From Pseudofrankia sp. DC12 (GTDB taxonomy: Bacteria; Actinomycetota; Actinomycetes; Frankiales; Frankiaceae), in assembly GCF_000966285.1 (NCBI RefSeq), contig NZ_KQ031391.1:492978-556977 (forward strand): a stretch of 64,000 nt of DNA, in the 5' to 3' direction. Under the pieces are notes generated by a model. The model was not told where the DNA came from and did not search any database. It saw nothing but the letters and a program-made list of their open reading frames with translations. Below are positions 3,933 through 30,459 of the stretch, in pieces; position 1 is the first letter of the stretch, and each line of letters begins with the position of its first letter. Both the position numbers and the translations under genes were made by a program.

Positions 3933-5051
3933 TCAGGCGCCGGCGTCGAGGACGATCTCGACGCGGCGGTTGGCGGCCCGGCCGGCCCGGGTCGCGTTGT
4001 CCGCGATCGGGCGGTTCGCGCCGTAGCCGACGGCCCGCAGCCGCCCGGCCAGCACGCCTCTCGTCACGAGGTAGCCCACCACGGCCTGCGCCCGCCCGAG
4101 AGAAAGAGCCTGGTTGACGGAGGCGGGCCCGGTGCCGTCGGCGTGACCGGCGACCAGCGCCGGGAAGGTGCCCGCGCGCAGCGCGACGGCGATCCCGTCG
4201 AGCGCGGCCCGGTCACTGTCGGACAGCGCCGCGCTGCCGGAGGCGAAGGTGACGGGGTGGCCCGAACTGGCGGCCGCGAGGCCCACGCCGGCCTCGCCCG
4301 GCCCCTGGGCGCCACTCGTTCCCGTCGCCGCGCCGGCCGCGGACCCGGCGTCCGGCGCCGCGGTGGTGGCGACGACCAGCTGGTTGTCCAGGTCGATCCT
4401 GGTCGCGCCGGTGCGGCCCGCGGTGAGCACGGCGGCGCCGAGGCTCGCCCTGCTGCTCTCGTTGGCGACCGTGCCGGTCAGCACGAGGTGGCCGCCGACC
4501 AGGGTCAGCGTGTGGGTCCCGGGCCCGCGGGACAACGCGGTGACGAGGCCGGCCAGCGCCGGGAGGGCCGGCTGGGCGGCCCGCGGGTCGATGGCGATCT
4601 CGCTGGTCAGCCGCCCACCGGTGGCGTCGACGACGTCGTTGAGGAGAGCGGCGCGCTGGGCCCGGTCCGGGACCGTCGCGCGCACCGTCAGCCGGCCTCC
4701 GTCGACGCTCAGCACGACCGGCTCGGCCGGCCTGGTCGCGATGAGCGCGTCCGAGCCGAGCCGAGCCGAGCCGACCCCGTCCACCCTGGCGGCGCGCAGG
4801 GCAGCGTCGGCAGCGGCGGCGCTGGCGAAGTCGCCGTGCAGGGTGGCCGCCCTGCCGGCGACCGTGACCACGACCTGGGTCGCGCCGGACTGGCGTACCG
4901 CCTCGTTCGCCCGCTGGGAGAGGTCCTTCTCGATCGGTCCGCGGCGCAGCCCGACCGCCAGCAGGGCGAGCACGAGCCAGGTCAGCAGCAGCGAGACGGC
5001 GAACACGACCGGTCGCGGACGCTTCAGCTGCGGTACCGCGGACAGGACCAT
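3933..5051 (-). CDS. ArfA-like membrane protein with BON repeats and an OmpA domain
   Basis: Predicted envelope protein of 372 residues. After a short basic head there is one membrane helix (about residues 15-38, FAVSLLLTWLVLALLAVGL), then a region of two or three BON-type repeats (about 45-250, each with the alternating gDAxLAxxVxxAL pattern), a flexible Gly/Ala linker, and a C-terminal OmpA domain (about 275-372) with the peptidoglycan-binding pattern GHADGTGPASVNQALSLGRA ending in NRRVEIVL. This order matches mycobacterial ArfA/Rv0899, which supports survival at low pH. Start ATG at 5051 follows CGGAG. It stands alone on the minus strand downstream of a PAP2 gene. Peptidoglycan tethering is likely; transport activity is not implied by the sequence. 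Confidence 0.85.
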   Translation of the reverse strand: MVLSAVPQLKRPRPVVFAVSLLLTWLVLALLAVGLRRGPIEKDLSQRANEAVRQSGATQVVVTVAGRAATLHGDFASAAAADAALRAARVDGVGSARLGSDALIATRPAEPVVLSVDGGRLTVRATVPDRAQRAALLNDVVDATGGRLTSEIAIDPRAAQPALPALAGLVTALSRGPGTHTLTLVGGHLVLTGTVANESSRASLGAAVLTAGRTGATRIDLDNQLVVATTAAPDAGSAAGAATGTSGAQGPGEAGVGLAAASSGHPVTFASGSAALSDSDRAALDGIAVALRAGTFPALVAGHADGTGPASVNQALSLGRAQAVVGYLVTRGVLAGRLRAVGYGANRPIADNATRAGRAANRRVEIVLDAGA

Positions 5052-5367: not shown

Positions 5368-6507
5368 CTAGGTGAGGGTCGCCAGTCCCCCGGCCGCGGA
5401 CCGGGACGGGTTCGCCGGGTTGGGGACCGACGGCTGATCACAGGGGGCCGGGGCCGGGGCCGGGACGGCCGCGGCCAGCGAGTCCGCCGCCGCACCGGAG
5501 CCGGCCGGCAGCGGCAGGCGGTCGGGCGCGGGCGAGAGGTCGTCGCCCGCCGGCGTGGCCAGGCCCCGGCGTGGGGACCGGCGGGTGAGCGCGATGGCCG
5601 CCGCCGCCGAGACCGCCAGCACCGTCCAGCCGGCGACGGCGTCCAGGATGTAGTGGTTCGCCGTCGCCATCACGACGAACGCAGTGCAGCACGGGTACAG
5701 CACGCCGAGCACCCGCAGCCACAGCCAGCGGGCGTGGCGGGCGATCAGCAGCCCGCACCACAGCGCCCAGGCGCAGTGCAACGAGGGCATCGCGGCGTAC
5801 AGGTTGGCGACCTTGTCGAGGCCGTGCGGAGCGGCGCTGGCACTGGCGCTCCACCAGCCGTAGTTGCTGAACCGGGACATCGTGTCGATGAAGCCGGAGT
5901 TCGGCAGCAGCCGCGGCGGCGCCGTCGGGAACAGGAAGAACCCGATCAGGCACAGGATCGTGGTGAACACCAGCGTCCAGCGGGCCCGCGCGTAGCTCAT
6001 GCCGTGACGGCGGTGCATCCACAGGATGACCGTCGGCGTGACGATGAAGTGCAGGGTCGCGTAGTAATAGCAGCAGATCACCGCGAGTACCGGCACGGTC
6101 TGCAGCCAGTGGTTCAGCGAGAGCTCGCTGTCCAGGTGCAGCGCGGTCTGCCAGCGCAGCAGCGTCTGGCCGGTCCGGGTCGCCTCGGCGACGGAGCCCT
6201 CGGCGAACCCGCGGGTCGCCGTGTAGCAGTAGTACAGCGCGACCAGGATCAGGATCTCGACCCACCAGACGGGCCGCCCGGTCTCCGGATCACGGAACCG
6301 CCTGCGCCATCGGTCTCCGCGGCTCTCCAGGCCGGCGGCGCCGTGCTCGGCTGCGGCCGGGCCCGCGGCCGTCACCAGAGCCACCGGCGCCTCCTCGCGG
6401 CCGTCCGGTGCCGTGCCCACCTGCCCCGCGCCAGCCGTCTGCGCCACGTGGACGCGCGGCCTCGGGGTACCTGCCCCGTCCTGACCCGTTGCCATCCCTC
6501 TACTCAA
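5368..6507 (-). CDS. PAP2-family membrane phosphatase/phosphotransferase
   Basis: Integral membrane enzyme of the PAP2 superfamily, close to the inositolphosphotransferase Aur1/Ipt1-like branch. Roughly six hydrophobic segments occupy residues 80-320. The second and third PAP2 motifs are present: PSLHC, and NHYILDAVAG with the catalytic His and Asp. Both ends are Pro/Ala-rich and cytosolic in character. Start: TTG at 6507 has GGAGG seven bases upstream and is preferred to the ATG at 6495, which has GAGGG directly adjacent. Substrates could be phosphatidate, isoprenyl diphosphate or inositol lipids; the sequence does not decide. The next gene upstream, on the same strand, is an L,D-transpeptidase, fitting a role in the cell envelope. 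Confidence 0.85.
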   Translation of the reverse strand: MSRGMATGQDGAGTPRPRVHVAQTAGAGQVGTAPDGREEAPVALVTAAGPAAAEHGAAGLESRGDRWRRRFRDPETGRPVWWVEILILVALYYCYTATRGFAEGSVAEATRTGQTLLRWQTALHLDSELSLNHWLQTVPVLAVICCYYYATLHFIVTPTVILWMHRRHGMSYARARWTLVFTTILCLIGFFLFPTAPPRLLPNSGFIDTMSRFSNYGWWSASASAAPHGLDKVANLYAAMPSLHCAWALWCGLLIARHARWLWLRVLGVLYPCCTAFVVMATANHYILDAVAGWTVLAVSAAAAIALTRRSPRRGLATPAGDDLSPAPDRLPLPAGSGAAADSLAAAVPAPAPAPCDQPSVPNPANPSRSAAGGLATLT

Positions 6508-6664
6508 CCCGATACCTCCGACTGTTCTCCTACCAGCCCCACCGGACAGGCCCAGCCCGCCCGAGCCGGAAACGCTGCAGGGGATCAGCTCCGCCACCCC
6601 GAGGCGGGGCAGCGGCACCGATCCCCTGTGACCAAGCGCACGCCGAGAAGCTCCCCCGCGAAGG

Positions 6665-8020
6665 TCAGGTGCCGGGGTGGGTGCTGGCGGTGGCCGGGCT
6701 CGCCGGTGCCGCCACCGAGCCGGCGCCGCTCGCGCCGGTGGGGGTGGCGCCGCTCGCCGGCAGGGCGCTGCCGGCCACCCAGGTGGACCACGGTATCGAC
6801 CAGTCGTTACCCAGCTGCGAGGTGTCCGGCGGCCGGCCGCTGTTGAAGACGTTGACGATGTCCCCGACCTGGCTGAAGTTGTAGAACCACTCTGCGTCGG
6901 CCGGCGCCGCGTTCACGCAGCCGTGCGAGACGTTGACCCGGCCCTGGTCGGCCACCGACCACGGGGCCGCGTGGACGTACTGACCACCGCTGGTGATCTG
7001 CACGTTCCACAGCACGGTCTCGTAGTAGTAGTCCGGGTCACCCTTCGGGATGCCGACCGTCGCCGAGTCCATGATCACGGACTGGGCCTTGCCGATGACG
7101 TTGTGCGGCCCGTCCATGGTCAGCAGGGTCGGCTTGCCGCCCTTGCCACCGCTGATCGGCAAGGTCTTCACCAGCTGGCCGTTGCGGTAGACCTTCATCG
7201 TGTGCGCGGCGATGTCGACCTGGCTGACCTGTGCGGCGCCGATGGTGAAGTCCATCGCGCGGTCCTTGACCCCGAGCAGCCCGTTGCCGGCATCGAGCCC
7301 GGCCAGGTTCGCCTCGACGTGGACCTTGGTGCCGGACGGGTAGTAGTCCTTCGGGCGCCAGCGGACCACCCGGTCGGTCAGCCAGCTCCAGGAGCCCTCG
7401 AGCGCCGGGGTGGTGGTGACGGACAGCCTGCTCTGCACGGCGGCGCGGTCGGTGGTGGGGCTGCTGAAGGTCAGCACGACCGGTGTGCCGACGCCGACGA
7501 CGTCGCCGCCGACCGGCTCCCAGGAGACCTTGAACTGTTTGGCCGGGGTTCCCGTCGTGAAGGCCACGTGGCTGGTCGTGGTGCCGGTGACGCCGGCGGC
7601 CGGCGCGGTCGACGCGGTCACCTGGTAGTCACTGGCCGCGTAGAGGCCGCCGGTCGACGTCCAGGTCCTGTGGTCCGCCGAGTAGGTCCCGACCAGAGTG
7701 CCGGCGTCGGTCTTCTGCGACGTGCTCGCGGCGCGGGCGACCTGGACGTCGACGAGCGGGGCGTTGGCCGTGACGACGACCTTGTCCGTCACCGCGACGC
7801 CGGTCGCGCCGTCGGCCGGAGTCACCTTGACGGCGGCCGCCGGCACCGCGGGCGTGGTCGGCGCGCTGCCGTCGGCCTGGGCGCCCCCGCCGCCGCTCCC
7901 GCAGGCAGCCAGGATGATCGCGAGCAGCGGTATGACGATCGCGACGAGAGGCCTGGGAAAACCACCGCGCACGGCGGCCCGGCCAGGCCGATGATTGGGC
8001 TCGCTCGCGGAGAAGACCAT
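6665..8020 (-). CDS. L,D-transpeptidase lipoprotein (YkuD domain, Ldt family)
   Basis: Cross-links peptidoglycan stem peptides 3->3 outside the membrane. The 451-residue product begins with a signal peptide ending in the lipobox LAAC (Cys about residue 39), followed by a Gly/Ser spacer, two Ig-like domains (about 60-250), and the YkuD catalytic domain with the motif VSHGCVNAAPADAEWFY holding the nucleophilic Cys and its His. A Gly/Ala/Pro-rich tail closes the protein. The architecture is that of mycobacterial LdtMt2. ATG at 8020 follows GAAGAAGG seven bases away; longer frames upstream have no ribosome site and would bury the signal peptide. Confidence 0.94.
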   Translation of the reverse strand: MVFSASEPNHRPGRAAVRGGFPRPLVAIVIPLLAIILAACGSGGGGAQADGSAPTTPAVPAAAVKVTPADGATGVAVTDKVVVTANAPLVDVQVARAASTSQKTDAGTLVGTYSADHRTWTSTGGLYAASDYQVTASTAPAAGVTGTTTSHVAFTTGTPAKQFKVSWEPVGGDVVGVGTPVVLTFSSPTTDRAAVQSRLSVTTTPALEGSWSWLTDRVVRWRPKDYYPSGTKVHVEANLAGLDAGNGLLGVKDRAMDFTIGAAQVSQVDIAAHTMKVYRNGQLVKTLPISGGKGGKPTLLTMDGPHNVIGKAQSVIMDSATVGIPKGDPDYYYETVLWNVQITSGGQYVHAAPWSVADQGRVNVSHGCVNAAPADAEWFYNFSQVGDIVNVFNSGRPPDTSQLGNDWSIPWSTWVAGSALPASGATPTGASGAGSVAAPASPATASTHPGT

Positions 8021-8773
8021 CGTTCGCCTTCTTCCGATCTCCGGGACTGCCGTTAGCACGTCCGTGCGACAACTCTGTGCCGGACGGTACCCATCGGCGC
8101 GGCGTTCGTCGCGCCGAGGAAGCAAAATAGCCCTGTCGCCAGGGCGACCATCACCATTTGACCAAGATGCCAATACGGAGAGTCGCACTCTCCTGGCAAT
8201 GTTCACGAAGCCCTCCCACACCGCACGACCGACATCTACCGCCGCACGGACCGTTCGTGATCCTGACAACCTGCCACCGAGCGGGGCGATATCTCGCCAG
8301 GCCCGCACCGCCGTCGGCCCAGACCGGCCCGCCCGGAACACGCGGCTCCGGTGGAGCGGCCCACATCAACGACAACAAACGGCCACCGTGTGTGCCGGCT
8401 CCGCTCCCCCGCGGCGCCGGCCGATAACCGATCCCGGACCAGCCTGCCTCACCAGAACCACCGGGCGCACCGCCGGCTTCCCACCGGCCACGGGACGGTG
8501 AACAACATCCGCCCGGCGCCGGTCTAGCGCGTCACTATGCGGTCGTGGAAACCCGGGAATGTCACAAAGAACGCCCCGGTCGGACGCGGAGAGTAAGCAT
8601 ACAAGGGCGGGCTGCCGGCTGGCGGCGGCGGAATCCCGAAACATGCGCCGAACAGGGCCGTGACAGGGGCCGCGACCCGGCGGGCGAGGATGGCGCCGGG
8701 AGCGCGGCCACGCCCGGCCGCCCTGGGTGACGGCGGGCGCACGGCCCGAAGAGGCTGAGGGACAGGAGGCGCC
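8021..8773. other. Long divergent intergenic region (ldt / urate oxidase)
   Basis: About 750 bp with no convincing gene. It lies between divergent genes, so it should carry both promoters. A small hairpin GCCCTG-TCGC-CAGGGC sits at 8130-8145. Base composition is slightly less GC-rich than flanking genes around 8100-8260. Open frames near 8550-8730 have no ribosome site or coding bias. Confidence 0.6.
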
Positions 8774-9664
8774 ATGGCGATCGTTCTCGGGCCGAACCAG
8801 TTCGGGAAGGCGGAGGTACGGCTGGTCCACGTGGACCGGTCGACCCCGGTGCACAGGATCACCGATCTCAACGTGTCGTCCGCGCTGCGCGGCGACTTCA
8901 CCGATGCGCATCTGACCGGTGACAACGCGCACATCCTCACTACCGACGCGCAGAAGAACACCGTGTACGCGTTCGCGCGGGACGGCGTCGGCGAGATCGA
9001 GGAGTTCGCGCTGCGGCTGGCCCGGCATTTCACCGGTTCGTTCCCGTGGATTACCGGCAGCCGGGTCGAGATCGAACAGTACGGCTGGGACCGCATCCCG
9101 GTCGGCGGCGCCGGACATGACCATGCATACAGCCGGGCCGGTGCCGAACGGCGCACCACGGTCGTCACGCTGGACGGCGACGAGGCACACGTCGTTTCCG
9201 GCCTCGCCGGGCTCGTCGTGCTCAAGTCGACCGGTTCGGAGTTCTGGGGCTTCGCGACCGACCGCTATACCACGCTTCCCGAGACCACCGACCGGATCCT
9301 CGCCACCGAGGTCACCGCGCGCTGGCGCCTGACCGGCCTCGGGCACGACTACGGGAAGCTGTTCACCAGCATACGGACGATCCTGCTGGAGACGTTCGCG
9401 TCGGTGCACAGCCTCGCGTTGCAGCAGACGCTTTACAAGATGGGCGAGGAGGTGCTGACCGCACATCCGGAGGTCGCCGAGATCAGGATGTCGATGCCGA
9501 ACAGGCACCATTTCCTGGTCGACCTGGAACCGTACGGCCTCGACAACCCCAACGTCGTCTTCTACGCGGCCGACCGCCCCTACGGCAAGATCGAGGGGAC
9601 GGTGGCCAGGGACGACGCGCCCCCGGCCGGGCCGGCGTGGCTGACGGTCCCCGGCTTCTGCTGA
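8774..9664 (+). CDS. Urate oxidase (uricase)
   Basis: Cofactor-free urate hydroxylase: urate + O2 -> 5-hydroxyisourate + H2O2, first step of urate breakdown. The 296-residue length and two tandem T-fold halves fit the family. Recognisable segments are the N-terminal FGKAEVRLVHV, the TTDAQKNTVYA loop with the catalytic Thr and the preceding Lys of the first half, LKSTGSEFWGF, and MPNRHHFLVDL near the C-terminus. AGGAGG lies four bases before the ATG, an excellent ribosome site. No allantoin or hydroxyisourate genes are adjacent, so it is a stand-alone purine-salvage or nitrogen-scavenging gene here. Confidence 0.95.
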   Translation: MAIVLGPNQFGKAEVRLVHVDRSTPVHRITDLNVSSALRGDFTDAHLTGDNAHILTTDAQKNTVYAFARDGVGEIEEFALRLARHFTGSFPWITGSRVEIEQYGWDRIPVGGAGHDHAYSRAGAERRTTVVTLDGDEAHVVSGLAGLVVLKSTGSEFWGFATDRYTTLPETTDRILATEVTARWRLTGLGHDYGKLFTSIRTILLETFASVHSLALQQTLYKMGEEVLTAHPEVAEIRMSMPNRHHFLVDLEPYGLDNPNVVFYAADRPYGKIEGTVARDDAPPAGPAWLTVPGFC

Positions 9665-9674
9665 GCCGCTCCGG

Positions 9675-10487
9675 TCAGCTCGCCCGCAGGGTCACGACGT
9701 CGCCGGGAGCCAGGCCCAGCCGGCTCGCGGCGGCGCCGTCGCGTACGGCGAACGCCGCCATCCCGGCCGAGTCGACGTAGAGCACCAGCTCGCCCGTCCC
9801 CACGGACCCGAACGTCACCCCGACCGGGATCCGCAGCGGCGCGCCGGCCGCCGAGGTCAGGACCTCGGCCCGGCCGCCGGGCACCAGCCCGACATCCGCG
9901 AGAAGATCGCCGGTCGCGGCCAGCTGGACGTTGCCGAACCGGTCCACGAGCACGACCTCCGCCTCCAGCTCGGCGGCCGGCGCGTCGGCCGCGCGCACCC
10001 GGGCGAGGACCGGCGGGAGCTGGACCAGCCCGGCCGGGTCGACCCGCTCACCGAGCGTCTCCGGCGACGTGCCGGTGGCCAGCTCCGCCGCGGCGGGCGC
10101 GAAGACGTCGCGCCCGTGGAAGGTCGCGGGAACCCCCGGCCGGGCCACCAGCGCCACCGCAGCCCGCACCCCGCCGAGCACCGCGGTCGCGGGGGCGAGC
10201 AGGCCGTTGTCCGGCCCGACCAGCAGCCCGCCCGGCGTGACCAGCACGATCCCGCGCCGGCTGGTGCCGACGCCCGGGTCGACGACAGCCAGATGCACAG
10301 GGACCGGCAGGTAACGCACCGTCTGGGCCAGCACCGCCGCGCCGCGCCGCACATCTCCCGGGTCGATCAGGTGGGTGATGTCCAGCGCCCGCACGCCGCG
10401 GCGCAGCAGCACGCCGTGACACGCCGCGACGAACCCGTCGGCGAGCCCGTAGTCGGTCAGGAAGCTCACGTGCGGCACGGCATCCAT
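9675..10487 (-). CDS. SAM hydrolase / hydroxide adenosyltransferase (DUF62 family)
   Basis: Probably splits S-adenosylmethionine with hydroxide to adenosine and methionine; relatives are the chlorinase and fluorinase. The 270 residues show the family landmarks in order: LTDYG near residue 11, DPGDVRRGA, VVDPGVGT, GPDNGLL, FHGRDVFAP and DRFGNVQL. The Asp and Arg of FHGRD/DPGVG support hydroxide chemistry. ATG at 10487 follows GAGAGAG. It is convergent with urate oxidase with only ten bases between the stops, and four copies of a 17-bp repeat lie upstream. Confidence 0.9.
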   Translation of the reverse strand: MDAVPHVSFLTDYGLADGFVAACHGVLLRRGVRALDITHLIDPGDVRRGAAVLAQTVRYLPVPVHLAVVDPGVGTSRRGIVLVTPGGLLVGPDNGLLAPATAVLGGVRAAVALVARPGVPATFHGRDVFAPAAAELATGTSPETLGERVDPAGLVQLPPVLARVRAADAPAAELEAEVVLVDRFGNVQLAATGDLLADVGLVPGGRAEVLTSAAGAPLRIPVGVTFGSVGTGELVLYVDSAGMAAFAVRDGAAASRLGLAPGDVVTLRAS

Positions 10488-10530
10488 GCTCTCTCGCCAC
10501 CCACCAGGCGCCAGCGGGGCCGCGCTGGCC

Positions 10531-10598
10531 GACCGTCACGCCAGCCCGACCGTCACGCCAGCCCGACCGTCACGCCAGCCCGACCGTCACGCCGACCA
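10531..10598. repeat. 17-bp tandem repeat, four copies
   Basis: Unit GACCGTCACGCCAGCCC starts at 10531, 10548, 10565 and 10582; the fourth copy diverges in its last bases. It lies in the spacer upstream of the DUF62 gene, 45-110 bp from its start. Confidence 0.9.
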
Positions 10599-10703
10599 GC
10601 CGTCGCGACCAGCGCCCCACTGGAAGTCTTGGTCACTAATCCTATGCCCAAACCGGACAGACCCCAGGCAACGGGGCCGGCCCCGGCCCCGTTGCGGGCC
10701 TGC

Positions 10704-11894
10704 TCAGATCGCGCCGTCGGCACGCAGCCCGGCCAGCTCCGCGCCGTCGTAGCCGAGCTCGGTCAGGATCTTCTCGGTGTGCTCACCGAGCGCCGGCACC
10801 GGCTCCAGCCGGGGCGGGGCGCCCGGGAACTCGACCACTGGGCGCAGCTGACGGACCGGCCCGGCCGGGGAGTCGATCTCGATCCAGCGGTCCCGGGCGG
10901 CCAGCTGCGGGTGAGTCAGCACGTCAGCCATCTCGTTGACCCGCCCGTAGGCGATCCCAGTCGCGTCGAGGCGAGCTGTCACCTCGGCCGTCGGCAGCCG
11001 GCCGACGACGCCGGCGACCAGCGCGTCGGTACGGGCCCGGTTGCGCACCCGCTCCCGGTTGGTCGCGAACCCCGGGTCGTCGGCCAGCTCCGGGCGGCGC
11101 AGCAGGCCGACCGCCAGCCGGGCCCACTCGCGGTCGTTCTGCACCCCGATCAGCACGCTGTCGCCGTCGCCGGTGGTGAACGCCTCGTACGGCGCGATCG
11201 AGGGATGGCCGACGCCGGCCCTGGCCGGGGCACGGCCAGTGTGCTCGGCGAACTGGACGGCGTAGCCGTTCCACTCGGTGATCGCGTCCAGCATCGTGAG
11301 GCCGAGCGCCGCGCCCGCGCCGGTCCGCTCCCGGCGCAGCAGCGCCACCAGGACCGCCTGCGCCGCGTAGGTGCCGGCGGCGACGTCCGCCGCGGCGAAC
11401 CCGGCCTTCGCCATGTGCTCCGGCGTGCCGGTCACCGAGACGAGGCCGGACTCGGCCTGGATCAGCATGTCGTAGGCGCGCCGGCCGGCGTAGGGGCCGC
11501 TCGGGCCGTAGCCGGACAGGTCGACGGCGACCAGCCGCGGGTACCGCTCCAGCAGCCCGTCCGCGTCCAGGCCGAGCCGGGCGGCGGCGCCGGGTGAGAG
11601 GTTCTGCGCGACGACGTCGGCGGTGGCGACCAGCTTCTCGACGGCCGCCCGGCCGGACGGCACCTTGACGTCGACCGCGAAGGACTCCTTCGACCGGTTC
11701 AGCCAGGAGAAGTGCGCCGACATCCGGCCGCGGACGGCGTCGTCATAGGCGCGGGCGAAGTCGCCGGCTCCCGGGCGTTCGATCTTGATCACCCGGGCGC
11801 CGTACTCGGCGAGATGACGGGTCGCGAACGGCAGCGCGACCGCGTGTTCCAGGCTGACGACGGTCATTCCGGCAAGCGGCAGCACGACCAGCAC
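10704..11894 (-). CDS. CaiB/BaiF-family (class III) acyl-CoA transferase
   Basis: Moves CoA between carboxylic acids through an aspartyl-CoA intermediate. The product has the family's typical N-terminal pattern ALPFATRHLAEYGARVIKIERPGAGDFAR, the SKESFAVDVK segment, the catalytic Asp in AYDMLIQAESGL and the C-terminal ALGEHTEKILTELGY. Length of about 396 residues is normal. The start is uncertain: GTG at 11894 or 11885 or ATG at 11867 are all in frame and none has a clear ribosome site; conserved sequence begins at LPLAGMTVV. It is divergent from the DUF3099 gene. The acyl substrate cannot be named. Confidence 0.9.
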   Translation of the reverse strand: MLVVLPLAGMTVVSLEHAVALPFATRHLAEYGARVIKIERPGAGDFARAYDDAVRGRMSAHFSWLNRSKESFAVDVKVPSGRAAVEKLVATADVVAQNLSPGAAARLGLDADGLLERYPRLVAVDLSGYGPSGPYAGRRAYDMLIQAESGLVSVTGTPEHMAKAGFAAADVAAGTYAAQAVLVALLRRERTGAGAALGLTMLDAITEWNGYAVQFAEHTGRAPARAGVGHPSIAPYEAFTTGDGDSVLIGVQNDREWARLAVGLLRRPELADDPGFATNRERVRNRARTDALVAGVVGRLPTAEVTARLDATGIAYGRVNEMADVLTHPQLAARDRWIEIDSPAGPVRQLRPVVEFPGAPPRLEPVPALGEHTEKILTELGYDGAELAGLRADGAI

Positions 11895-19667: not shown

Positions 19668-20390
19668 CTAGTGGCCCATGCCTATGCCGCCGTCGACCGG
19701 GAGGACGGCGCCGGTGATGTAGGAGGCCCGCTCGGAGGCGAGGAACGCGACCGCGGCGGCGACCTCGTCCGGCTCGCCCATCCGCCGGCCCGGGACACTG
19801 GAGATGATCAGCTCGCGCTGGGCGTCGGTGAGCGCGTCGATCATGGCGGTGCGGATCGGTCCCGGCGAGACGACGTTCGACGTGATCCCGCGCGGCGCGA
19901 GCTCACGGGCCAGCGAGCGGGCGAAACCGATGAGGCCGGCCTTGGAGGCCGCGTAGTTCGACTGGCCCGCGTGCCCGGACATGCCGACGACCGACGAGAT
20001 GAACACCAGCCGGCCGTAGCGGCGGCGTAGCATGCCCCGCGCCGCCCGCTTGGCGACCCGGTAGGCGCCGAGCAGGTTCGTGTCGACGACGTCCCGGAAG
20101 GCGTCCTCGGACATCGTCAGCAGCAGCGTGTCCTTCTCGATCCCCGCGTTGGACACGACGATGTCGACCGGGCCGAGCTCAGCCTCGACCTCGGCGAACG
20201 CCTTGTCGACCGACTCCACGCTCGTCACGTCCAGCCGGACGCCGAACAGCCCGTCGGGCGCCTGCCCGCCCCGGCTGGCGACCGCGACCCGCTGGCCATC
20301 CGCGGCCAGCGCCGCGGCGCAGGCGGCGCCGATCCCCCGGTTACCCCCGGTGACAAGCGCTACCCGACCCTGACCCGCGTTCTCTGCCAT
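19668..20390 (-). CDS. fabG: 3-oxoacyl-ACP reductase (FabG/MabA)
   Basis: NADPH-dependent beta-ketoacyl-ACP reductase of FAS-II. The 240-residue short-chain dehydrogenase shows TGGNRGIGAA for the cofactor, NAGIEKD, the catalytic Ser in VFISSVVG, Tyr and Lys in YAASKAG, and the C-terminal ITGAVLPVDGGIGMGH typical of FabG. ATG at 20390 has TACGAT seven bases upstream and no ribosome site, so it appears leaderless. It is the first gene of fabG-hemH. InhA, its FAS-II partner, lies 9.3 kb away on the other strand. Confidence 0.95.
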   Translation of the reverse strand: MAENAGQGRVALVTGGNRGIGAACAAALAADGQRVAVASRGGQAPDGLFGVRLDVTSVESVDKAFAEVEAELGPVDIVVSNAGIEKDTLLLTMSEDAFRDVVDTNLLGAYRVAKRAARGMLRRRYGRLVFISSVVGMSGHAGQSNYAASKAGLIGFARSLARELAPRGITSNVVSPGPIRTAMIDALTDAQRELIISSVPGRRMGEPDEVAAAVAFLASERASYITGAVLPVDGGIGMGH

Positions 20391-20397
20391 AGAGCGG

Positions 20398-20403
20398 ATC
20401 GTA
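20398..20403 (-). promoter_or_regulatory. Leaderless -10 element before fabG
   Basis: TACGAT on the minus strand ends seven bases before the fabG ATG; no Shine-Dalgarno sequence is present. Confidence 0.5.
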
Positions 20404-20637
20404 GCGGTCTCCGGCACCTCCGGGCCGAACCTCGGCCACCGCGATCCGTGGCCAGGCAGCGTCCCGGCCCGCCCGCGCGAGGCGCGTCTCACACTCGGGA
20501 CGCGGCCCGGCTGGACGGGACCGCCCAGGTTGGTACCCCGGCGAGCACGTACGGTTTCGACGAGCGTGTCGTAGTTCGCGGCGGGTCGCTCCGTGAGGAC
20601 CGGGGTTACCGCGTTCGGCGGGCGATGACGAAGATGG

Positions 20638-23577
20638 ATGCGGGGTGGCCGCAACGCACCGCCCGCCCCGCGCGTCCGGACTGGAGTGGCAGGCGTCGTG
20701 TTCAGGCCCGGGATTCGCCACGTCGAGTACCGACCGCGGGAATGGTCCTTCGAGCCGCCCGGCCGGCCGGTGGACGAGGCCGCGCCCGGCAACGACGGCG
20801 ACGACCGTGCACCCGGCGACCGCGGCGCACCTGGCGACCACGCTGGCCCCGGTGACGACGGTGGCCCCGGTGACGACGGTGGCCCTGGCGGCGACGTGAC
20901 GGCCCAGGCCGGGCTGCCAGCCGACGAGGCCGCCGTCGCCGGCCGGCCCGCCGAGCCCGTGAGCCCGCCCGGGCGAACCGTGCCGTGGCTCGGGCAGGTC
21001 GAGCCCGGGCCCGCGCTGCAGCCCTTGCCGGCGCCGCCCGATCCCACCCGGGCGCCGGCCGCGGCCGCGCCAGGCGCGATCGTCCCCGGCCCACCCGGCG
21101 GGATCCTCGACCTGGGTGCGCTGGCCGAGGTCGAGGACCGGCTGCGTCAGCTGGCGACGGCCCACATCGACGGCGCCGCCCAGGCCGGCGGCCTGGATCG
21201 GGGATCCGCGGACCGGCGCCGCGCGCTGACGACGGCCGGGGCGTCCGCGGCCGCCGTGCTCTGGTTCGACTCCCTGCGCGCCGAGGACCGGGTCAGCGCC
21301 ACACCGGACGCGGCACCGCTGCTGGCCGCCGTCCACGAGGTGCTGGAGGCTGCGCGCCCGGCGGTTGCCGGCACCGACGACGACGAGGCCACGGGTAGCC
21401 GCGGCGAGGGTGGCGGAAGCCGGGCCGACGGCGCCCGGCCGGGCGCCGAAGGCGGCCCGGTCACGCGGCTTCCGGTGCCCGCCGGCCCGGCGGCGCGCGC
21501 GTTGCGCGCGACCGGCGCCGGCACCGCCGGTCCGAGCGGGACCGTCTGGGGCGCGCTGGGCCGGCGCTTCGCCGGCACCCGGTTCGACCATTCCCAGGGC
21601 GGCCGGATCGTCTGCCTCCTCGAGTACCCGGAGCTGCGTGACGCGGCCGTCTGGGAGGCGGTCACCGACGAGCGGACGCCGTATCTCGGGGAGCTGTTCT
21701 GGGTGGTGCTGGTCTCGGGCGCGGCCGTCGGCGCCGAGGCGGCCGGCGCCGAGCGGGCCGGCCTCGGCGGGCCCGGCGGCCCGGACCGGGCCGCGAGGAT
21801 GTTCGAGGCCGCCGGCTGGCAGGTGCTCACTCTCCGTCACGGCAGACGGCTGGCCGCTCTGTTCGGCCGCCCGGGCGGGCAGGCGCTGCGGGCCCGCCTC
21901 GGCCGGATGAGCCAGGAGGAGTACCGCGAGCTGCTGACCACCTACGGGCCGCCCCTGCGCCGCCGGCTCGCCGGGCCAGGCGCGGCCGGCGTCGGCGTCG
22001 CGGGGCTGGTGGAGACGCTCACCGACGACGAGATCCACGCCGCGCTGCGTGACCTGGGCGGCCATGACCTGGCGCTGCTGATCGACGCCTTCGACGAGGT
22101 GGCCGCGGACCGGCCGACCGTGCTGTTCGCCCACGTCCACAGCCGCGCGACCCGGGATCCCGAGGCCCACGAGGTCCGGCCGGGCCCGGCGCCGGCCGTC
22201 GGCATCACCTCGGTCCGCCCGATGGTCCCGCCGGCGGGGAAAGCGGACCCGGTGGTCAGGCCGGCGGGCGGCGGATCCACGCTCCAGCCGCTGGCCGGCG
22301 GCCGGCCGGGCGAGGGCGGTCGCGGCGCCCGGCTAGCCGCCCACGTCGCGTCCTACCTGGACCGGGCAACCCGCGCGGCCCCGCTCCCACCGCCCGTCCC
22401 GCCGGATCTCGACCCCGGCGGTGACGGACAGGCGCTCGCGTCGACCCAGTCGGCGTTCGGTCACCTGCTGCGCGGCCTGGCCGCCGCCGCGCCCGAGCTG
22501 GCCGACGCGATCGTCACGGTCTCGACGAGGGACGCCGACGGCGTCGTCGCGGACTGGCTGGACCCGGTGCCGGACGCGGGCCCGGCGCTGGCGTCGTCGA
22601 CTGGGCGCCGGCACGTCGCCGGGACGCTCACGCCCGGCGCGTTCGCCGGGGTGCTGGGCAACCTGGGCGTCGCGTGGAACCGGCAGGGCCTGGCGCTGCT
22701 GCCGATCGGGGTCACCGACGAGCTCGCCGCCGGCCGGGTGGTGGCGGCCTGGGCGGCCGGCTGCGCGACCGACGCGCGCTCGGTGCTCGCGATCGCCGAC
22801 ACCGGCCGCTACCCGGCGGCCGGGGCCGGCCAGCGGACGGCGGGCCCAGCGGTCGCGGCCGTGACAGCCGGGGCCGGTCTGCCCGGCGTGACCCGCTATG
22901 AGCCGGCCTTCGCGCAGGACCTGGCCTGGTGCCTGCTCGCGGCGCTCGGCAGGCTGGGCCGGGCCGACGGCGGGTCCGGCCTGGTGCGGCTGTCGGGCCG
23001 GCCGGTCGACCAACGGGCGGCGGCCGTGCCCGCTCCCGGGCCGGGGCGCGACCACCGGCGGGCGGGTGTGCTGGCCGGTGGCTACCGGCTGCGGTCAGGC
23101 GGTCCCGCGCCGCTGCTGACCCTGGTCGGGATGGGCGCGGTCCTCCCGGAGGTGCTGGCCGCGGCGGGCGAGCTGACGGACCGGCTGGGCGGCGGGATCG
23201 GGGTGGCCGTCGTGACGTCGGCAGACCTGGTGTTCGACGCGCTGCGCGCCCGCGACGAGCGTTCCCACGCCGCCGACGCGGACGCGGCGGACCGGTCCTG
23301 GGTGCTGGCGGAGCTGCTCCCGGCGAACCTGCGCGCCCCGCTGGTGACCGTCGTCGACGGCGACCCGCGCCAGCTCGGCTTCCTGGCCGGCGTGCACGGC
23401 GACCGGCTCGCCGCCGTCGGCGCGGGCCCCGCCGGCGACGAGTCCGGCGCGGGCGCTCCCGTCGCGGCCGCGGCGATCGTCGGGGCGGCGCTGCGCCTGC
23501 TGGGCCGGGACGCGGACGCCCCGGCCGGCCAGGACCAGGCCGGTCCCGGCGCCGGGCCGGAACGGGTCAGCCGCTGA
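20638..23577 (+). CDS. Divergent transketolase / pyruvate-dehydrogenase E1-like protein, probable pseudoenzyme
   Basis: A 979-residue protein with the three-part layout of AceE-type E1 and related actinobacterial transketolases. Family resemblance is clear in LWFDSLRAEDRVS, AGWQVLTLRHGRRL, LFGRPGGQALRARLGRM, LRDLGGHDL, LLPIGVTDEL, RYEPAFAQDLAWCLLAALGRLGR, VRLSGRPVDQ and LLTLVGMGAVLPE. Yet residues that hold or activate thiamine diphosphate in the family are changed: the KPHASP-type His is Asp224, GDxELDEG is EYPELRDA at 329-336, the LNRQ Asn is gone near 360, and the Glu of IAEVN is Pro666. Residues 50-90 are collagen-like Gly-X-Y, and 380-odd further residues are Ala/Gly/Pro inserts. The start is uncertain (ATG 20638 or GTG 20698). 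It overlaps the convergent TPR gene by 11 bases at the stops. Role unknown; scaffold or regulator is more likely than E1 catalysis. Confidence 0.85.
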   Translation: MRGGRNAPPAPRVRTGVAGVVFRPGIRHVEYRPREWSFEPPGRPVDEAAPGNDGDDRAPGDRGAPGDHAGPGDDGGPGDDGGPGGDVTAQAGLPADEAAVAGRPAEPVSPPGRTVPWLGQVEPGPALQPLPAPPDPTRAPAAAAPGAIVPGPPGGILDLGALAEVEDRLRQLATAHIDGAAQAGGLDRGSADRRRALTTAGASAAAVLWFDSLRAEDRVSATPDAAPLLAAVHEVLEAARPAVAGTDDDEATGSRGEGGGSRADGARPGAEGGPVTRLPVPAGPAARALRATGAGTAGPSGTVWGALGRRFAGTRFDHSQGGRIVCLLEYPELRDAAVWEAVTDERTPYLGELFWVVLVSGAAVGAEAAGAERAGLGGPGGPDRAARMFEAAGWQVLTLRHGRRLAALFGRPGGQALRARLGRMSQEEYRELLTTYGPPLRRRLAGPGAAGVGVAGLVETLTDDEIHAALRDLGGHDLALLIDAFDEVAADRPTVLFAHVHSRATRDPEAHEVRPGPAPAVGITSVRPMVPPAGKADPVVRPAGGGSTLQPLAGGRPGEGGRGARLAAHVASYLDRATRAAPLPPPVPPDLDPGGDGQALASTQSAFGHLLRGLAAAAPELADAIVTVSTRDADGVVADWLDPVPDAGPALASSTGRRHVAGTLTPGAFAGVLGNLGVAWNRQGLALLPIGVTDELAAGRVVAAWAAGCATDARSVLAIADTGRYPAAGAGQRTAGPAVAAVTAGAGLPGVTRYEPAFAQDLAWCLLAALGRLGRADGGSGLVRLSGRPVDQRAAAVPAPGPGRDHRRAGVLAGGYRLRSGGPAPLLTLVGMGAVLPEVLAAAGELTDRLGGGIGVAVVTSADLVFDALRARDERSHAADADAADRSWVLAELLPANLRAPLVTVVDGDPRQLGFLAGVHGDRLAAVGAGPAGDESGAGAPVAAAAIVGAALRLLGRDADAPAGQDQAGPGAGPERVSR

Positions 23578-24748
23578 CGTTGGCGTCGCGCAGGGTGAGC
23601 GCCTCGCGGCCGGCGGCGGCGGCGCCGGCCGCGTCGCCGCCGGTGGCGCGGACCCGGGCCACCTGTTCGAGGGCCCAGACCAGGTCGCGCAGGATCTCGG
23701 GGCGGTCACCGACGATCTGGCGGCGGCGGCGCTCGACGTCGAGGGCCTCCTCGAAGCCGTCGGCCGCGGCGGGCAGGTCGCCGAGGGCCTCCTTCGCCCC
23801 GGCGACCTTGTCGAGCCCGACCGACAGGTCGCGCAGGACCGTCGGGTGCTCGCCGTACTCGGTCCGCAGCCAGCGGACCAGCTTCAGGGACTCGTCGTAG
23901 GAGTCCATCGCGCCCGACACGTCGCCCTGGTCGTAGCGCATGTTCCCGACCAGGCTGAGCGAGTGGAACAGGGCGCGCGGCACCGTCGGGTCGATGTCGG
24001 TGCCGCCGGCCGAGGCGGCAGCGAGGGCCCGGCGGGCCGTCGCGACGCCCTCGTTGTAGCGGACGAGCGCGCCGGGACTGTCGCCGCGAAGCCGCAGCAT
24101 GTCGCCGACGTCGAGCAGCCCGCGGGAGATGTCCCGCAGCAGCGGAGCGACCTCGCCGTACACGCTGAGCAGCCCGCGCCGGACCTCCAGCGCCTCCGAG
24201 TACGCGTCCAGCGCGGCCTTCGTGTCGCTCTGCTGCTGGCGCAGGTCCCCGATCTTCTCCAGGGTGTTGGCGAGACGCTGGCGGGCCGTCGGCGCCGACG
24301 CGCCGTCGGCCAGCAGCCGGTGCGCGAGCGCCAGGCACTCGGTCTGGATGTCCAGCGCGCCGACCAGGTCGCCGAGCGCGGCGCGGGCGGCACCGGCCCG
24401 CTCCAGGCTGACCCCGAGGCGGCGTTCGGACTCGGGCGTGCGGTCGGCCGTGGCCAGGTGCCGGTTGATCCGCAGCGCTTCCTCGTAGTTCTCCTGGGCG
24501 AGCGGCGCCTGGTCGTGGTCGAGCAGGGCGTCGCCGTACTCGATCAGGGCCGCCGCGAGATGCCCGAGATCGGCGACTCCGCTGGTGGCCGAGGCGACCC
24601 GTTCCCGGCTCAGCGAGACCAGCGCCTCCAGCGCGGCCAGCAGTGTGTCCGGCTCACCGCGCTCTCTGGCCAGCTTCGCCAGCCGTTCGAGGTTCTGTGG
24701 GGTCAGCTGCTGTCCGGTGGCCGCGACCTGACCTGCGTGGTCGTCCAT
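23567..24748 (-). CDS. Tetratricopeptide-repeat protein
   Basis: A 393-residue all-helical protein. Six or seven TPR-like repeats span about residues 60-385, recognisable by recurrent alanine and glycine at fixed spacing, as in YGDALLDHDQAPLAQENYEEALRI, EKIGDLRQQQSDTKAALDAYSEAL and MRYDQGDVSGAMDSYDESLKL. It lacks a signal peptide or catalytic domain, so a protein-binding role in the cytosol is likely. ATG at 24748 has TACTCT seven bases upstream and no ribosome site, so it appears leaderless. Its last 11 bases overlap the 3' end of the E1-like gene on the other strand. The two may be functionally linked, but convergence does not prove it. Confidence 0.88.
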   Translation of the reverse strand: MDDHAGQVAATGQQLTPQNLERLAKLARERGEPDTLLAALEALVSLSRERVASATSGVADLGHLAAALIEYGDALLDHDQAPLAQENYEEALRINRHLATADRTPESERRLGVSLERAGAARAALGDLVGALDIQTECLALAHRLLADGASAPTARQRLANTLEKIGDLRQQQSDTKAALDAYSEALEVRRGLLSVYGEVAPLLRDISRGLLDVGDMLRLRGDSPGALVRYNEGVATARRALAAASAGGTDIDPTVPRALFHSLSLVGNMRYDQGDVSGAMDSYDESLKLVRWLRTEYGEHPTVLRDLSVGLDKVAGAKEALGDLPAAADGFEEALDVERRRRQIVGDRPEILRDLVWALEQVARVRATGGDAAGAAAAGREALTLRDANVSG

Positions 24749-28279: not shown

Positions 28280-29548
28280 GTGCATGAGACAGCATCGATC
28301 TTCATCGAGCTCGGCGGCGTGCTGTTCTGCCTCGGCCTCGTCGGGCACGTCGCCGCTCGGATCGGGATCTCCCCGATCCCGTTCTACCTGCTCGCCGGGC
28401 TCGCGTTCGGCCACGGCGGGCTGCTGCCACTAGGGGCCAGCGAGACCTTCATCGAGACCGGCGCCGCGATCGGCGTCGTCCTGCTGCTGCTCACCCTGGG
28501 GCTTGAGTACACGGCCGACGAGCTGATCCAGGGGCTGCGCCGGCAGGCCTCGGCCGGCCTCCTGGACCTCGTCCTGAACGCGGCTCCGGGCGTCGCCGCC
28601 GCGCTGCTGCTCGGCTGGGGTGGGCGCGCGGCCGTGGTCATGGGCGGGGTCACCGCGATCTCGTCGTCCGGGATCATCGCGAAGGTCCTCGGCGACCTGG
28701 GCCGGCTGGGCAACCGCGAGACGCCGGTGGTGCTCTCGGTGCTGGTGCTGGAGGACCTGGCGATGGCGGTGTACCTGCCGATCGTCACCGCGCTGCTGGC
28801 GCACCAGACGATCGCCCGCGGCTCGCTGACACTCACGGTCGCGCTCGGCGCGCTGGTCGGAGTGCTGTATCTGGCGCTGCGGCACAGCGCCAAGGTCACG
28901 CTGCTGGTGTTCAACCCCAGGTCCGACCGCAACGACGAGATCCTGCTGCTGCGGGCACTCGGGCTCGCGCTGCTGGTGGCGGGCGTCGCGCAGCGCCTCG
29001 AGGTGTCGGCGGCGGTCGGCGCGTTCCTGGTGGGCATCGCGCTGTCCGGGCCGGTCGCGCAGAGCGCGAGCGAGGTGCTGACCCCGCTGCGGGACCTGTT
29101 CGCCGCCGTCTTCTTCGTCTTCTTCGGACTGCGGACGGACCCCGCCGCGATCCCCTCGGCGCTGGCCGTGGCCTCCCTGCTGGCGATCGCCGGGATCGCG
29201 ACGAAGGTGCTGACCGGCTGGTGGGCGGCCCGCCGGGCGGGGATCGCGACACTCGGCCGGTTCCGCGCCGGGGCGGCCCTGGTAGCCCGCGGCGAGTTCT
29301 CGATCGTCATCGCCGGCCTCGCCGTCGCCGCCGGGATGAACCCGAAGCTGGGGCCGCTCGCCGCCAGCTACGTGCTGCTGATGGCCATCCTCGGCCCGCT
29401 CGCCGCCCGGTTCGTCGAGCCCGTCACCCGCGCGGCGCTGCGCAGGCGCCGCCGCAAGCCGCCCACGCCGGGCTCCGGCGCCGCGCCGCGGACCCAGGAC
29501 CCGGGACCCGCCGCGCTCCCGGCGGCCAGCGACCAGCCGGACCGGTGA
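28280..29548 (+). CDS. khtU: CPA2-family K+/H+ antiporter (KhtU/KefB-like)
   Basis: Integral membrane cation/proton antiporter of 422 residues with about 12 hydrophobic segments. Landmarks are the N-terminal ARIGISPIPFYLLAGLAFG, the TLGLEYTADEL segment, TAISSSGIIAKVL, VLVLEDLAMAVYLP (the conserved acidic pair of the transport site), GAFLVGIALSGP and FFVFFGLRTD. A basic and proline-rich tail of 45 residues lies in the cytosol. It lacks the C-terminal TrkA-N domain of KefB, consistent with regulation by the separate KhtT protein upstream. GTG at 28280 is preceded by AGGAGG. Likely role: potassium efflux and pH homeostasis. Confidence 0.92.
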   Translation: MHETASIFIELGGVLFCLGLVGHVAARIGISPIPFYLLAGLAFGHGGLLPLGASETFIETGAAIGVVLLLLTLGLEYTADELIQGLRRQASAGLLDLVLNAAPGVAAALLLGWGGRAAVVMGGVTAISSSGIIAKVLGDLGRLGNRETPVVLSVLVLEDLAMAVYLPIVTALLAHQTIARGSLTLTVALGALVGVLYLALRHSAKVTLLVFNPRSDRNDEILLLRALGLALLVAGVAQRLEVSAAVGAFLVGIALSGPVAQSASEVLTPLRDLFAAVFFVFFGLRTDPAAIPSALAVASLLAIAGIATKVLTGWWAARRAGIATLGRFRAGAALVARGEFSIVIAGLAVAAGMNPKLGPLAASYVLLMAILGPLAARFVEPVTRAALRRRRRKPPTPGSGAAPRTQDPGPAALPAASDQPDR

Positions 29549-29685
29549 CGCGGGGCCGGCACGCCACGCGGCGGACCAGTCCAGGCCCGGCCAGGCCCGT
29601 TGTAGACAGGCCACAAAGACGCGGCGCGCGGATCTGGCACCCCGGCTATGCCGACCTGAGCAGCGCCTTTGGCAGGATGCCATTC

Positions 29686-30459
29686 ATGAGCGGACTTCTC
29701 GAGGGCAAGCGGGTCCTCGTCACCGGCGTGCTGACCGACGCGTCGATCGCGTTCAACGTGGCCCGGATCGCGCAGGAGCAGGGCGCCACCGTCGTGCTCA
29801 CCGGCTTCGGGCGCGGTCTGTCGATCACCAGGCGGATCGCGCGGCGGCTGCCGGTCGAGGCGCCCGTGCTGGAGCTCGACATCACCGTGGAGGAGCACGT
29901 CGCCGGCCTGGCGGGCCAGGTCCTCGAACACGTCGACGGCCTCGACGCGGTGCTGCACGCGATCGCGTTCGCGCCCGAGGCGGTGCTCGGCGGAAAACCG
30001 TTCGTCGAGGGCGCCTGGTCCGAGGTCGGCACCGCGGTCCAGGTGTCGGCCTGGTCGCTGGCCGCGCTGACCCGGGCCGCGCTGCCGCTGTTCGGCGAGA
30101 AGGCGAGCGTCGTCGGCCTGGACTTCGACGCCTCGGTCGCCTGGCCGAGCTACGACTGGATGGGCGTCGCCAAGGCCGGCCTCGCGTCGACCGCCCGCTA
30201 CCTGGCCCGCGACCTCGGCCCGCGCGGCATCCGGGTCAACCTGGTCTCGGCCGGGCCGCTGCGCACGATGGCCGCGAAGTCGATCCCGGACTTCGAGAAG
30301 TTCGAGCAGGTCTGGGACGGCCGCGCCCCGCTCGGCTGGGACGTGGCGAACACCGAGCCGGCGGCCCAGGCCTGCGTCGCCCTGATGTCGGACTGGTTCC
30401 CCGCCACCACCGGCGAGATCCTGCACGTCGACGGCGGCTTCCACGCCATCGGCGCTTGA
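29686..30459 (+). CDS. inhA: NADH-dependent enoyl-ACP reductase (InhA type)
   Basis: Last reductive step of each FAS-II cycle. The 257-residue product aligns closely with mycobacterial InhA: GLLEGKRVLVTGVLTDASIAF for NADH, AQEQGATVVLTGF, LELDITVEEHVAGLAG, LHAIAFAPE, DFDASVAWPSYDWMGVAKAGL with the catalytic Tyr and Lys, AGPLRTMAAK, and SDWFPATTGEI...DGG at the end. ATG at 29686 has AGGA about ten bases upstream. It stands alone here; fabG and hemH, its operon mates in mycobacteria, are about 9.3 kb away on the other strand. Three stacked hairpins follow it. Confidence 0.95.
   Translation: MSGLLEGKRVLVTGVLTDASIAFNVARIAQEQGATVVLTGFGRGLSITRRIARRLPVEAPVLELDITVEEHVAGLAGQVLEHVDGLDAVLHAIAFAPEAVLGGKPFVEGAWSEVGTAVQVSAWSLAALTRAALPLFGEKASVVGLDFDASVAWPSYDWMGVAKAGLASTARYLARDLGPRGIRVNLVSAGPLRTMAAKSIPDFEKFEQVWDGRAPLGWDVANTEPAAQACVALMSDWFPATTGEILHVDGGFHAIGA

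What the first reader, a model, noticed from the sequence alone, without database searches (positions are those of the whole stretch)
20638..23577. E1/transketolase-like protein that seems to have lost its thiamine-diphosphate chemistry
The fold is recognisable over most of 979 residues (AGWQVLTLRHGRRL, RPGGQALRARLGRM, LRDLGGHDL, RYEPAFAQDLAWCLLAALGRLGR, RLSGRPVDQ, LVGMGAVLPE). Yet from family knowledge four catalytic hallmarks are changed together: the KPHASP-type His is TPDAAP at 222-227, GDxELDEG is EYPELRDA at 329-336, the LNRQ Asn is gone near 360, the Glu of IAEVN becomes Pro666, and GGAHQS is missing near 720. Such coordinated loss in an intact frame suggests selection for a non-enzymatic function rather than decay.
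Basis: partly seen in the sequence, partly recalled or inferred. Interest (0 to 1): 0.72.

Follow-up and report, generated by a model that had tools for sequence, protein, structure and literature searches.

The report
Frankiaceae E1/transketolase-fold pseudoenzyme
Nearly all Frankia-type bacteria keep, at the same chromosomal spot, a large protein that looks like a pyruvate- or sugar-processing vitamin B1 enzyme but has lost nearly every amino acid needed to hold the vitamin, so it has probably been repurposed as a non-catalytic protein.

Summary
It belongs to one fully supported clade found in 22 of 25 Frankiaceae genomes (26 sequences in all), at one locus, divergent from fabG and usually between fabG and inhA. 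Its closest relatives, a ~35%-identical actinobacterial AceE-like family, keep the thiamine-diphosphate residues (71 of 71). In the Frankiaceae clade ten of eleven key positions are never retained; the eleventh (the KPHASP His) is kept by 13 of 21, and its Asp is private to the window. The frame is open and under purifying selection (core dN/dS 0.31-0.61, confidence limits below 1). Twenty-seven positions fixed in the enzymes are re-fixed to different residues. Two basal Frankiaceae genera carry only the catalytic version, elsewhere, and one of them has inhA and fabG adjacent, so an old single loss is likely. Best reading: a conserved pseudoenzyme, probably a dimeric scaffold or sensor; that role is inferred. 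Decay and a still-active ThDP enzyme are disfavoured; non-ThDP chemistry remains open.

The parts
20638..23577 (+). E1/transketolase-fold pseudoenzyme, 979 aa (959 aa if it starts at GTG 20698)
20698..20772 (+). N-terminal peptide VFRPGIRHVEYRPRE.S.EPPGRP, conserved codon-wise in the own genus only; possible real GTG start at 20698
20773..21072 (+). Low-complexity Gly/Pro/Asp-rich stretch (residues 46-145), weakly constrained
   Evidence: dN/dS 0.6-1.1
21085..22152 (+). PP-like (diphosphate-side) domain, residues 150-505
   Evidence: dN/dS about 0.2-0.4
21211..21219 (+). Former GGH (His106-type): DRR 192-194
21301..21318 (+). Former KPHASP: TPDAAP 222-227; most orthologues TPHAAP or TPHAGP
21622..21645 (+). 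Former GDxELDEG Mg-diphosphate motif: EYPELRDA 329-336
21709..21726 (+). Former DLNRQS (Mg-ligand Asn): residues 358-363, now in a variable Ala/Gly/Pro-rich stretch
22153..22332 (+). Interdomain linker, residues 506-565, low model confidence, dN/dS 0.5-1.3; replaces the enzyme's EGHPQNHS segment
22435..23037 (+). PYR-like domain, residues 600-800
22522..22539 (+). STRDAD 629-634 in place of the enzyme's SPDVSS (Asp521-type becomes Arg631)
22627..22635 (+). Former IAE catalytic Glu (Glu571-type): LTP 664-666; Ala or Pro in the clade
22714..22722 (+). TDE 693-695 in place of the enzyme's YD (Tyr599-type becomes Asp694); new fixed acidic pair
22771..22806 (+). D712/R714 and D721, new fixed residues in place of GGQ and TPSG
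22834..22863 (+). Site of the former GGAHQS loop (His640-type), deleted or scrambled
23038..23442 (+). Transketolase C-terminal-like domain, residues 801-935
20391..20637 (.). Intergenic region shared with divergent fabG
19668..20390 (-). fabG-like SDR, the conserved upstream neighbour
23567..24748 (-). TPR protein, convergent, overlapping the 3' end by 11 bp; neighbour in the own genus
29677..30459 (+). inhA-like enoyl reductase; in other genera it lies directly beyond the pseudoenzyme gene

Best explanation
The gene encodes a conserved pseudoenzyme of the AceE/transketolase fold. A copy of an actinobacterial AceE-like ThDP enzyme gene came to lie between inhA and fabG in an ancestor of most Frankiaceae and lost its whole ThDP-Mg site once: the diphosphate/Mg motif GDAELDEG, the Asn ligand, the catalytic Glu, most active-site His residues and Tyr. 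It has since been inherited vertically (supported by clade, synteny, loss pattern and purifying selection). The fold, and probably the homodimer built around the former active-site cleft, is kept (predicted). It most likely works as a non-catalytic dimeric scaffold or small-molecule sensor, using the former cofactor cleft or the re-fixed charged residues (R334/D335/E345, R631/D634, D694/E695, D712/R714/D721) to bind a ligand or partner. This last step is inference.
For: Key positions: 71 of 71 catalytic-family sequences keep them; none of 19-25 scored Frankiaceae sequences keeps ten of the eleven. One clade with 100% support, one change of state. Same locus next to fabG in Frankia, Parafrankia, Pseudofrankia and a further genus. 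22 of 25 family genomes have it. Core dN/dS 0.31 (0.24-0.39) to 0.61 (0.51-0.71); mostly 0.2-0.45 in domains against 0.5-1.3 in linkers; neighbours hemH 0.18-0.42, fabG 0.04-0.18; catalytic paralogue 0.12-0.27. 91 columns stay fixed to the enzyme's residue and 27 are re-fixed to another. AlphaFold2 model pLDDT 77, pTM 0.78, best match E. coli AceE, Z 34 over about 670 residues. Only 3 of the 22 genomes also hold a catalytic paralogue, so the protein does not depend on that paralogue as a partner.
Against: dN/dS is higher than in fabG or the catalytic paralogue, so constraint is partly relaxed. The model leans on catalytic homologues in the alignment: with 16 pseudoenzyme sequences alone pLDDT falls to 48. 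One genome (G009) has lost the gene, and G004 has a probable frameshift near residue 880. No expression, binding or phenotype data were found.
Confidence: 0.72

Rival explanations
1. Neofunctionalised enzyme: the cleft now runs a different, ThDP-independent reaction with the new invariant Arg/Asp/Glu residues.
For: 27 re-fixed columns, several charged and aligned with the former pyrimidine-side pocket: R631, D694/E695, D712/R714, D721.
Against: I know of no enzyme that uses this fold without ThDP (own knowledge). Much of the former site (His106, Asn260, His640, Tyr177 columns) varies freely.
Confidence: 0.13
2. Slow decay: an enzyme gene that lost its function in the Frankiaceae ancestor and is drifting away.
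For: Higher dN/dS than neighbours fabG and TPR; absent in G009; frameshift in one strain; variable former active-site columns.
Against: Open frame across the genera after large divergence (down to about 46% identity); dN/dS confidence limits well under 1; 278 of 718 comparable columns are at least 90% fixed within the clade.
Confidence: 0.08
3. Still a ThDP enzyme with unusual ligands.
For: Fold kept; GGHD (474-477) and Glu332 mostly kept; His142-type kept in 13 of 21.
Against: The Mg Asp is Tyr/Phe/His/Ala and the catalytic Glu is Ala/Pro in every one of 24 sequences. Some ThDP enzymes lack the catalytic Glu, but I know of none that also lacks the Mg ligands (own knowledge).
Confidence: 0.04
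4. Regulatory partner that forms heterodimers with the true AceE of the same cell.
For: A full-length true AceE is present in the genome.
Against: Identity to AceE is very low; the AceE N-terminal part is replaced by an unrelated low-complexity stretch.
Confidence: 0.03

Closest known systems
Uncharacterised actinobacterial AceE-like/transketolase-like family (Pfam PF00456 + PF17831 + PF22613), e.g. L028 Pseudonocardia dioxanivorans
   Same: Same domain order, about 35% identity over 800 residues
   Different: ThDP, Mg and catalytic residues present in 71 of 71; no long low-complexity N-terminal extension or long interdomain linker
Homodimeric pyruvate dehydrogenase E1 (AceE, TIGR00759; PDB 1l8a, 2g25)
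   Same: Fold, Z 34; weak sequence match over the GGHD helix region and the C-terminal half
   Different: 36 bits against a cut-off of 860; no ThDP site; no AceE-type N-terminal segment
Human TKTL1 / transketolase delta-38 model (PMC3485151)
   Different: TKTL1 loses one 38-residue segment; here many separate positions in both halves of the site are replaced, and some re-fixed, across a bacterial family

Membership tests
Pyruvate dehydrogenase E1, homodimeric (TIGR00759) | Score above the curated cut-off (859.9 bits) | tested here: not met
   36.1 bits
Pyruvate dehydrogenase E1, homodimeric (TIGR00759) | GDGxxD...N Mg-diphosphate motif and catalytic Glu571 | tested here: not met
   0 of 24 orthologues
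Pyruvate dehydrogenase E1, homodimeric (TIGR00759) | Overall three-domain fold | tested here: met
   Model pLDDT 77; Z 34 to 3lq2, 4qoy, 2g25, 1l8a; the model relies on catalytic homologues
Transketolase (PF00456/PF02779/PF02780) | Domain matches above gathering scores | tested here: not met
   Only PF02780 at E 0.19
Actinobacterial AceE-like family | Common ancestry with full-length alignment | tested here: met
   30-40% identity over about 800 residues
Actinobacterial AceE-like family | Intact ThDP-Mg site | tested here: not met
Pseudoenzyme | Loss of catalytic residues shared by orthologues | tested here: met
Pseudoenzyme | Purifying selection on the open frame | tested here: met
Pseudoenzyme | Absence of catalytic activity and cofactor binding | not testable with these tools
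   Needs purified protein

The most novel reading that the evidence does not exclude
A family-wide conserved ThDP-fold protein whose cofactor cleft has been rebuilt into a binding site for another ligand or partner, acting as a sensor or regulator inserted into the fatty-acid-synthesis gene neighbourhood of Frankiaceae.
Probability: 0.3. Interest if true: 0.68.

Novelty: new variant of a known kind. Interest (0 to 1): 0.52.

Why it matters
Clearly documented pseudoenzymes in the thiamine-diphosphate superfamily are few. This one has an apparent single loss, catalytic sister lineages in the same bacterial family, and strains that carry both versions, so it is a tractable case for asking what a large metabolic fold does after it gives up its cofactor. 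Automatic annotation as pyruvate dehydrogenase or transketolase would be misleading in Frankia metabolic models.

Tried and rejected
Chance ORF or wrong frame: rejected. Sequencing or assembly error: rejected, since the same losses occur in many independent genomes. Private change of one strain: only Asp224 is private. Structure from pseudoenzyme sequences alone: poor (pLDDT 48), so it neither confirms nor denies the fold by itself. Placement of the pseudoenzyme stem within the catalytic family: not resolved, because of the long branch. Three wide genome searches failed on the server and were replaced by a shorter query. Papers on a Frankia AceE/transketolase pseudoenzyme: none found; subscription papers are not covered. 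Conservation of the N-terminal peptide outside the genus: not found.

Full report
The window lies in a 6.88 Mb single-contig genome whose close relatives are Frankiaceae; its size suggests Frankia sp. DC12 (from memory, not tested). The ORF at 20638-23577 is open over 979 codons, with the codon-position G+C pattern of a real gene. Library matches are weak: NCBIfam aceE E=1.9e-9 but 36 bits against a cut-off of 860, PDB AceE E about 0.003, Pfam nothing significant. The genome has a full AceE elsewhere and no second copy of this protein.

Relatives fall into two groups. One is an actinobacterial AceE-like family at about 35% identity (Pseudonocardia, Amycolatopsis, Streptomyces, Nocardioides, Solirubrobacterales and others) that matches Pfam's transketolase N, PDH E1 middle and transketolase C-like models, scores 208 bits to aceE, and finds E. 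coli AceE in the PDB at 8e-47. It stays below every NCBIfam cut-off, so its own function is unassigned. The other is a Frankiaceae clade at about 46-82% identity.

Census of eleven positions, with E. coli numbering from memory (PDB titles confirm E571 and E235 as mutated residues). All 71 catalytic sequences keep their motif residues. In the Frankiaceae clade: His106-type 0 of 20, Tyr177-type 0 of 19, Mg Asp230-type 0 of 24 (Tyr, Phe, His or Ala), Glu235-type 0 of 24 (Asp in 23), Mg Asn260-type 0 of 24, loop Lys 0 of 25, Asp521-type 0 of 25 (Arg in 21), catalytic Glu571-type 0 of 24 (Ala 16, Pro 8), Tyr599-type 0 of 24 (Asp in 22), His640-type 0 of 22; only His142-type survives, in 13 of 21.

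History. The clade is monophyletic with full support and needs one change of state. The gene sits beside divergent fabG, with hemH and DUF3090 beyond, in Frankia, Parafrankia, Pseudofrankia and the genus of G011. In Frankia and Parafrankia inhA follows convergently; in most of the window's genus a TPR gene follows, and inhA lies further off. Of 25 family genomes, 22 have the pseudoenzyme, G009 has none, and G010 and G013 carry only a catalytic copy on other contigs. In G013 inhA and fabG are adjacent with nothing between, so the pseudoenzyme gene probably entered this spot later. In G009 fabG and inhA are about 4 kb apart with no trace of the gene. Three genomes of the own genus hold both versions.

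Selection. Core dN/dS runs from 0.31 (0.24-0.39) against the nearest relative to 0.61 (0.51-0.71) against Frankia; domains mostly 0.2-0.45, linkers up to 1.3. Strong codon bias (G+C 0.92 at third positions) depresses dS, so these are upper bounds (inference). Yardsticks: fabG 0.04-0.18, TPR 0.07-0.19, hemH 0.18-0.42, catalytic paralogue 0.12-0.27. Of 232 columns fixed in the enzymes, 91 are kept, 27 are re-fixed to another residue and 114 are no longer fixed. Re-fixed ones include, written as enzyme residue, window number, new residue: D334R, E335D, P345E, P630T, D631R, E661A, L662G, Y694D, D695E, G712D, Q714R and P721D. This is a mixture of relaxation and shifted constraint, not simple decay.

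Structure. With catalytic homologues in the alignment the model has pLDDT 77 and pTM 0.78 and matches E. coli AceE best (Z 34, about 670 aligned residues), then transketolases and phosphoketolases.

N-terminus. Residues 21-45 are conserved with third-base changes in five genomes of the genus and followed by a weakly constrained low-complexity stretch; this looks like a short docking peptide on a flexible tether (inference). It also suggests GTG 20698 as an alternative start.

Conclusion. Coordinated, old, clade-wide loss of the ThDP-Mg site in a maintained protein is shown. A pseudoenzyme acting as dimeric scaffold or sensor is the most likely function (inferred). The nearest published analogue is human TKTL1, for which a transketolase deletion model is folded but binds no thiamin cofactor specifically and has no activity (PMC3485151).

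Noticed in passing
L165 (G013 C147) 6621-8122; L163 (G009) 5810-11272: Basal Frankiaceae genus G013 has inhA and fabG adjacent, while other Frankiaceae have them separated by the pseudoenzyme gene; G009 has a second SDR gene and no pseudoenzyme in between.
   Followed up: partly
window 28280-30459: In the window the inhA-like gene lies next to a CPA2-type antiporter about 6 kb beyond the pseudoenzyme gene and on the other strand from that in Frankia and Parafrankia.
   Followed up: partly
L091 (G004) around 3948-3999: Probable single frameshift near residue 880 of the pseudoenzyme in one strain of the genus.
   Followed up: no
L006 around residues 188-215 of its ORF: A stretch matching window residues 345-375 reads as another frame and then returns, either a compensated frameshift or an assembly error.
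   Followed up: no
L046, L047: Aeromicrobium endophyticum carries two copies of the catalytic AceE-like family about 56 kb apart; the function of that whole family is unassigned.
   Followed up: no
L157 1611-11553: In G002 the catalytic paralogue lies beside a GntR-type regulator, amidohydrolase-like, aldehyde dehydrogenase-like and ABC transporter genes, which looks like a catabolic cluster.
   Followed up: no
window 20341-22170 (-): A 609-codon antisense open frame overlaps the gene; it looks like a GC-rich shadow frame.
   Followed up: no
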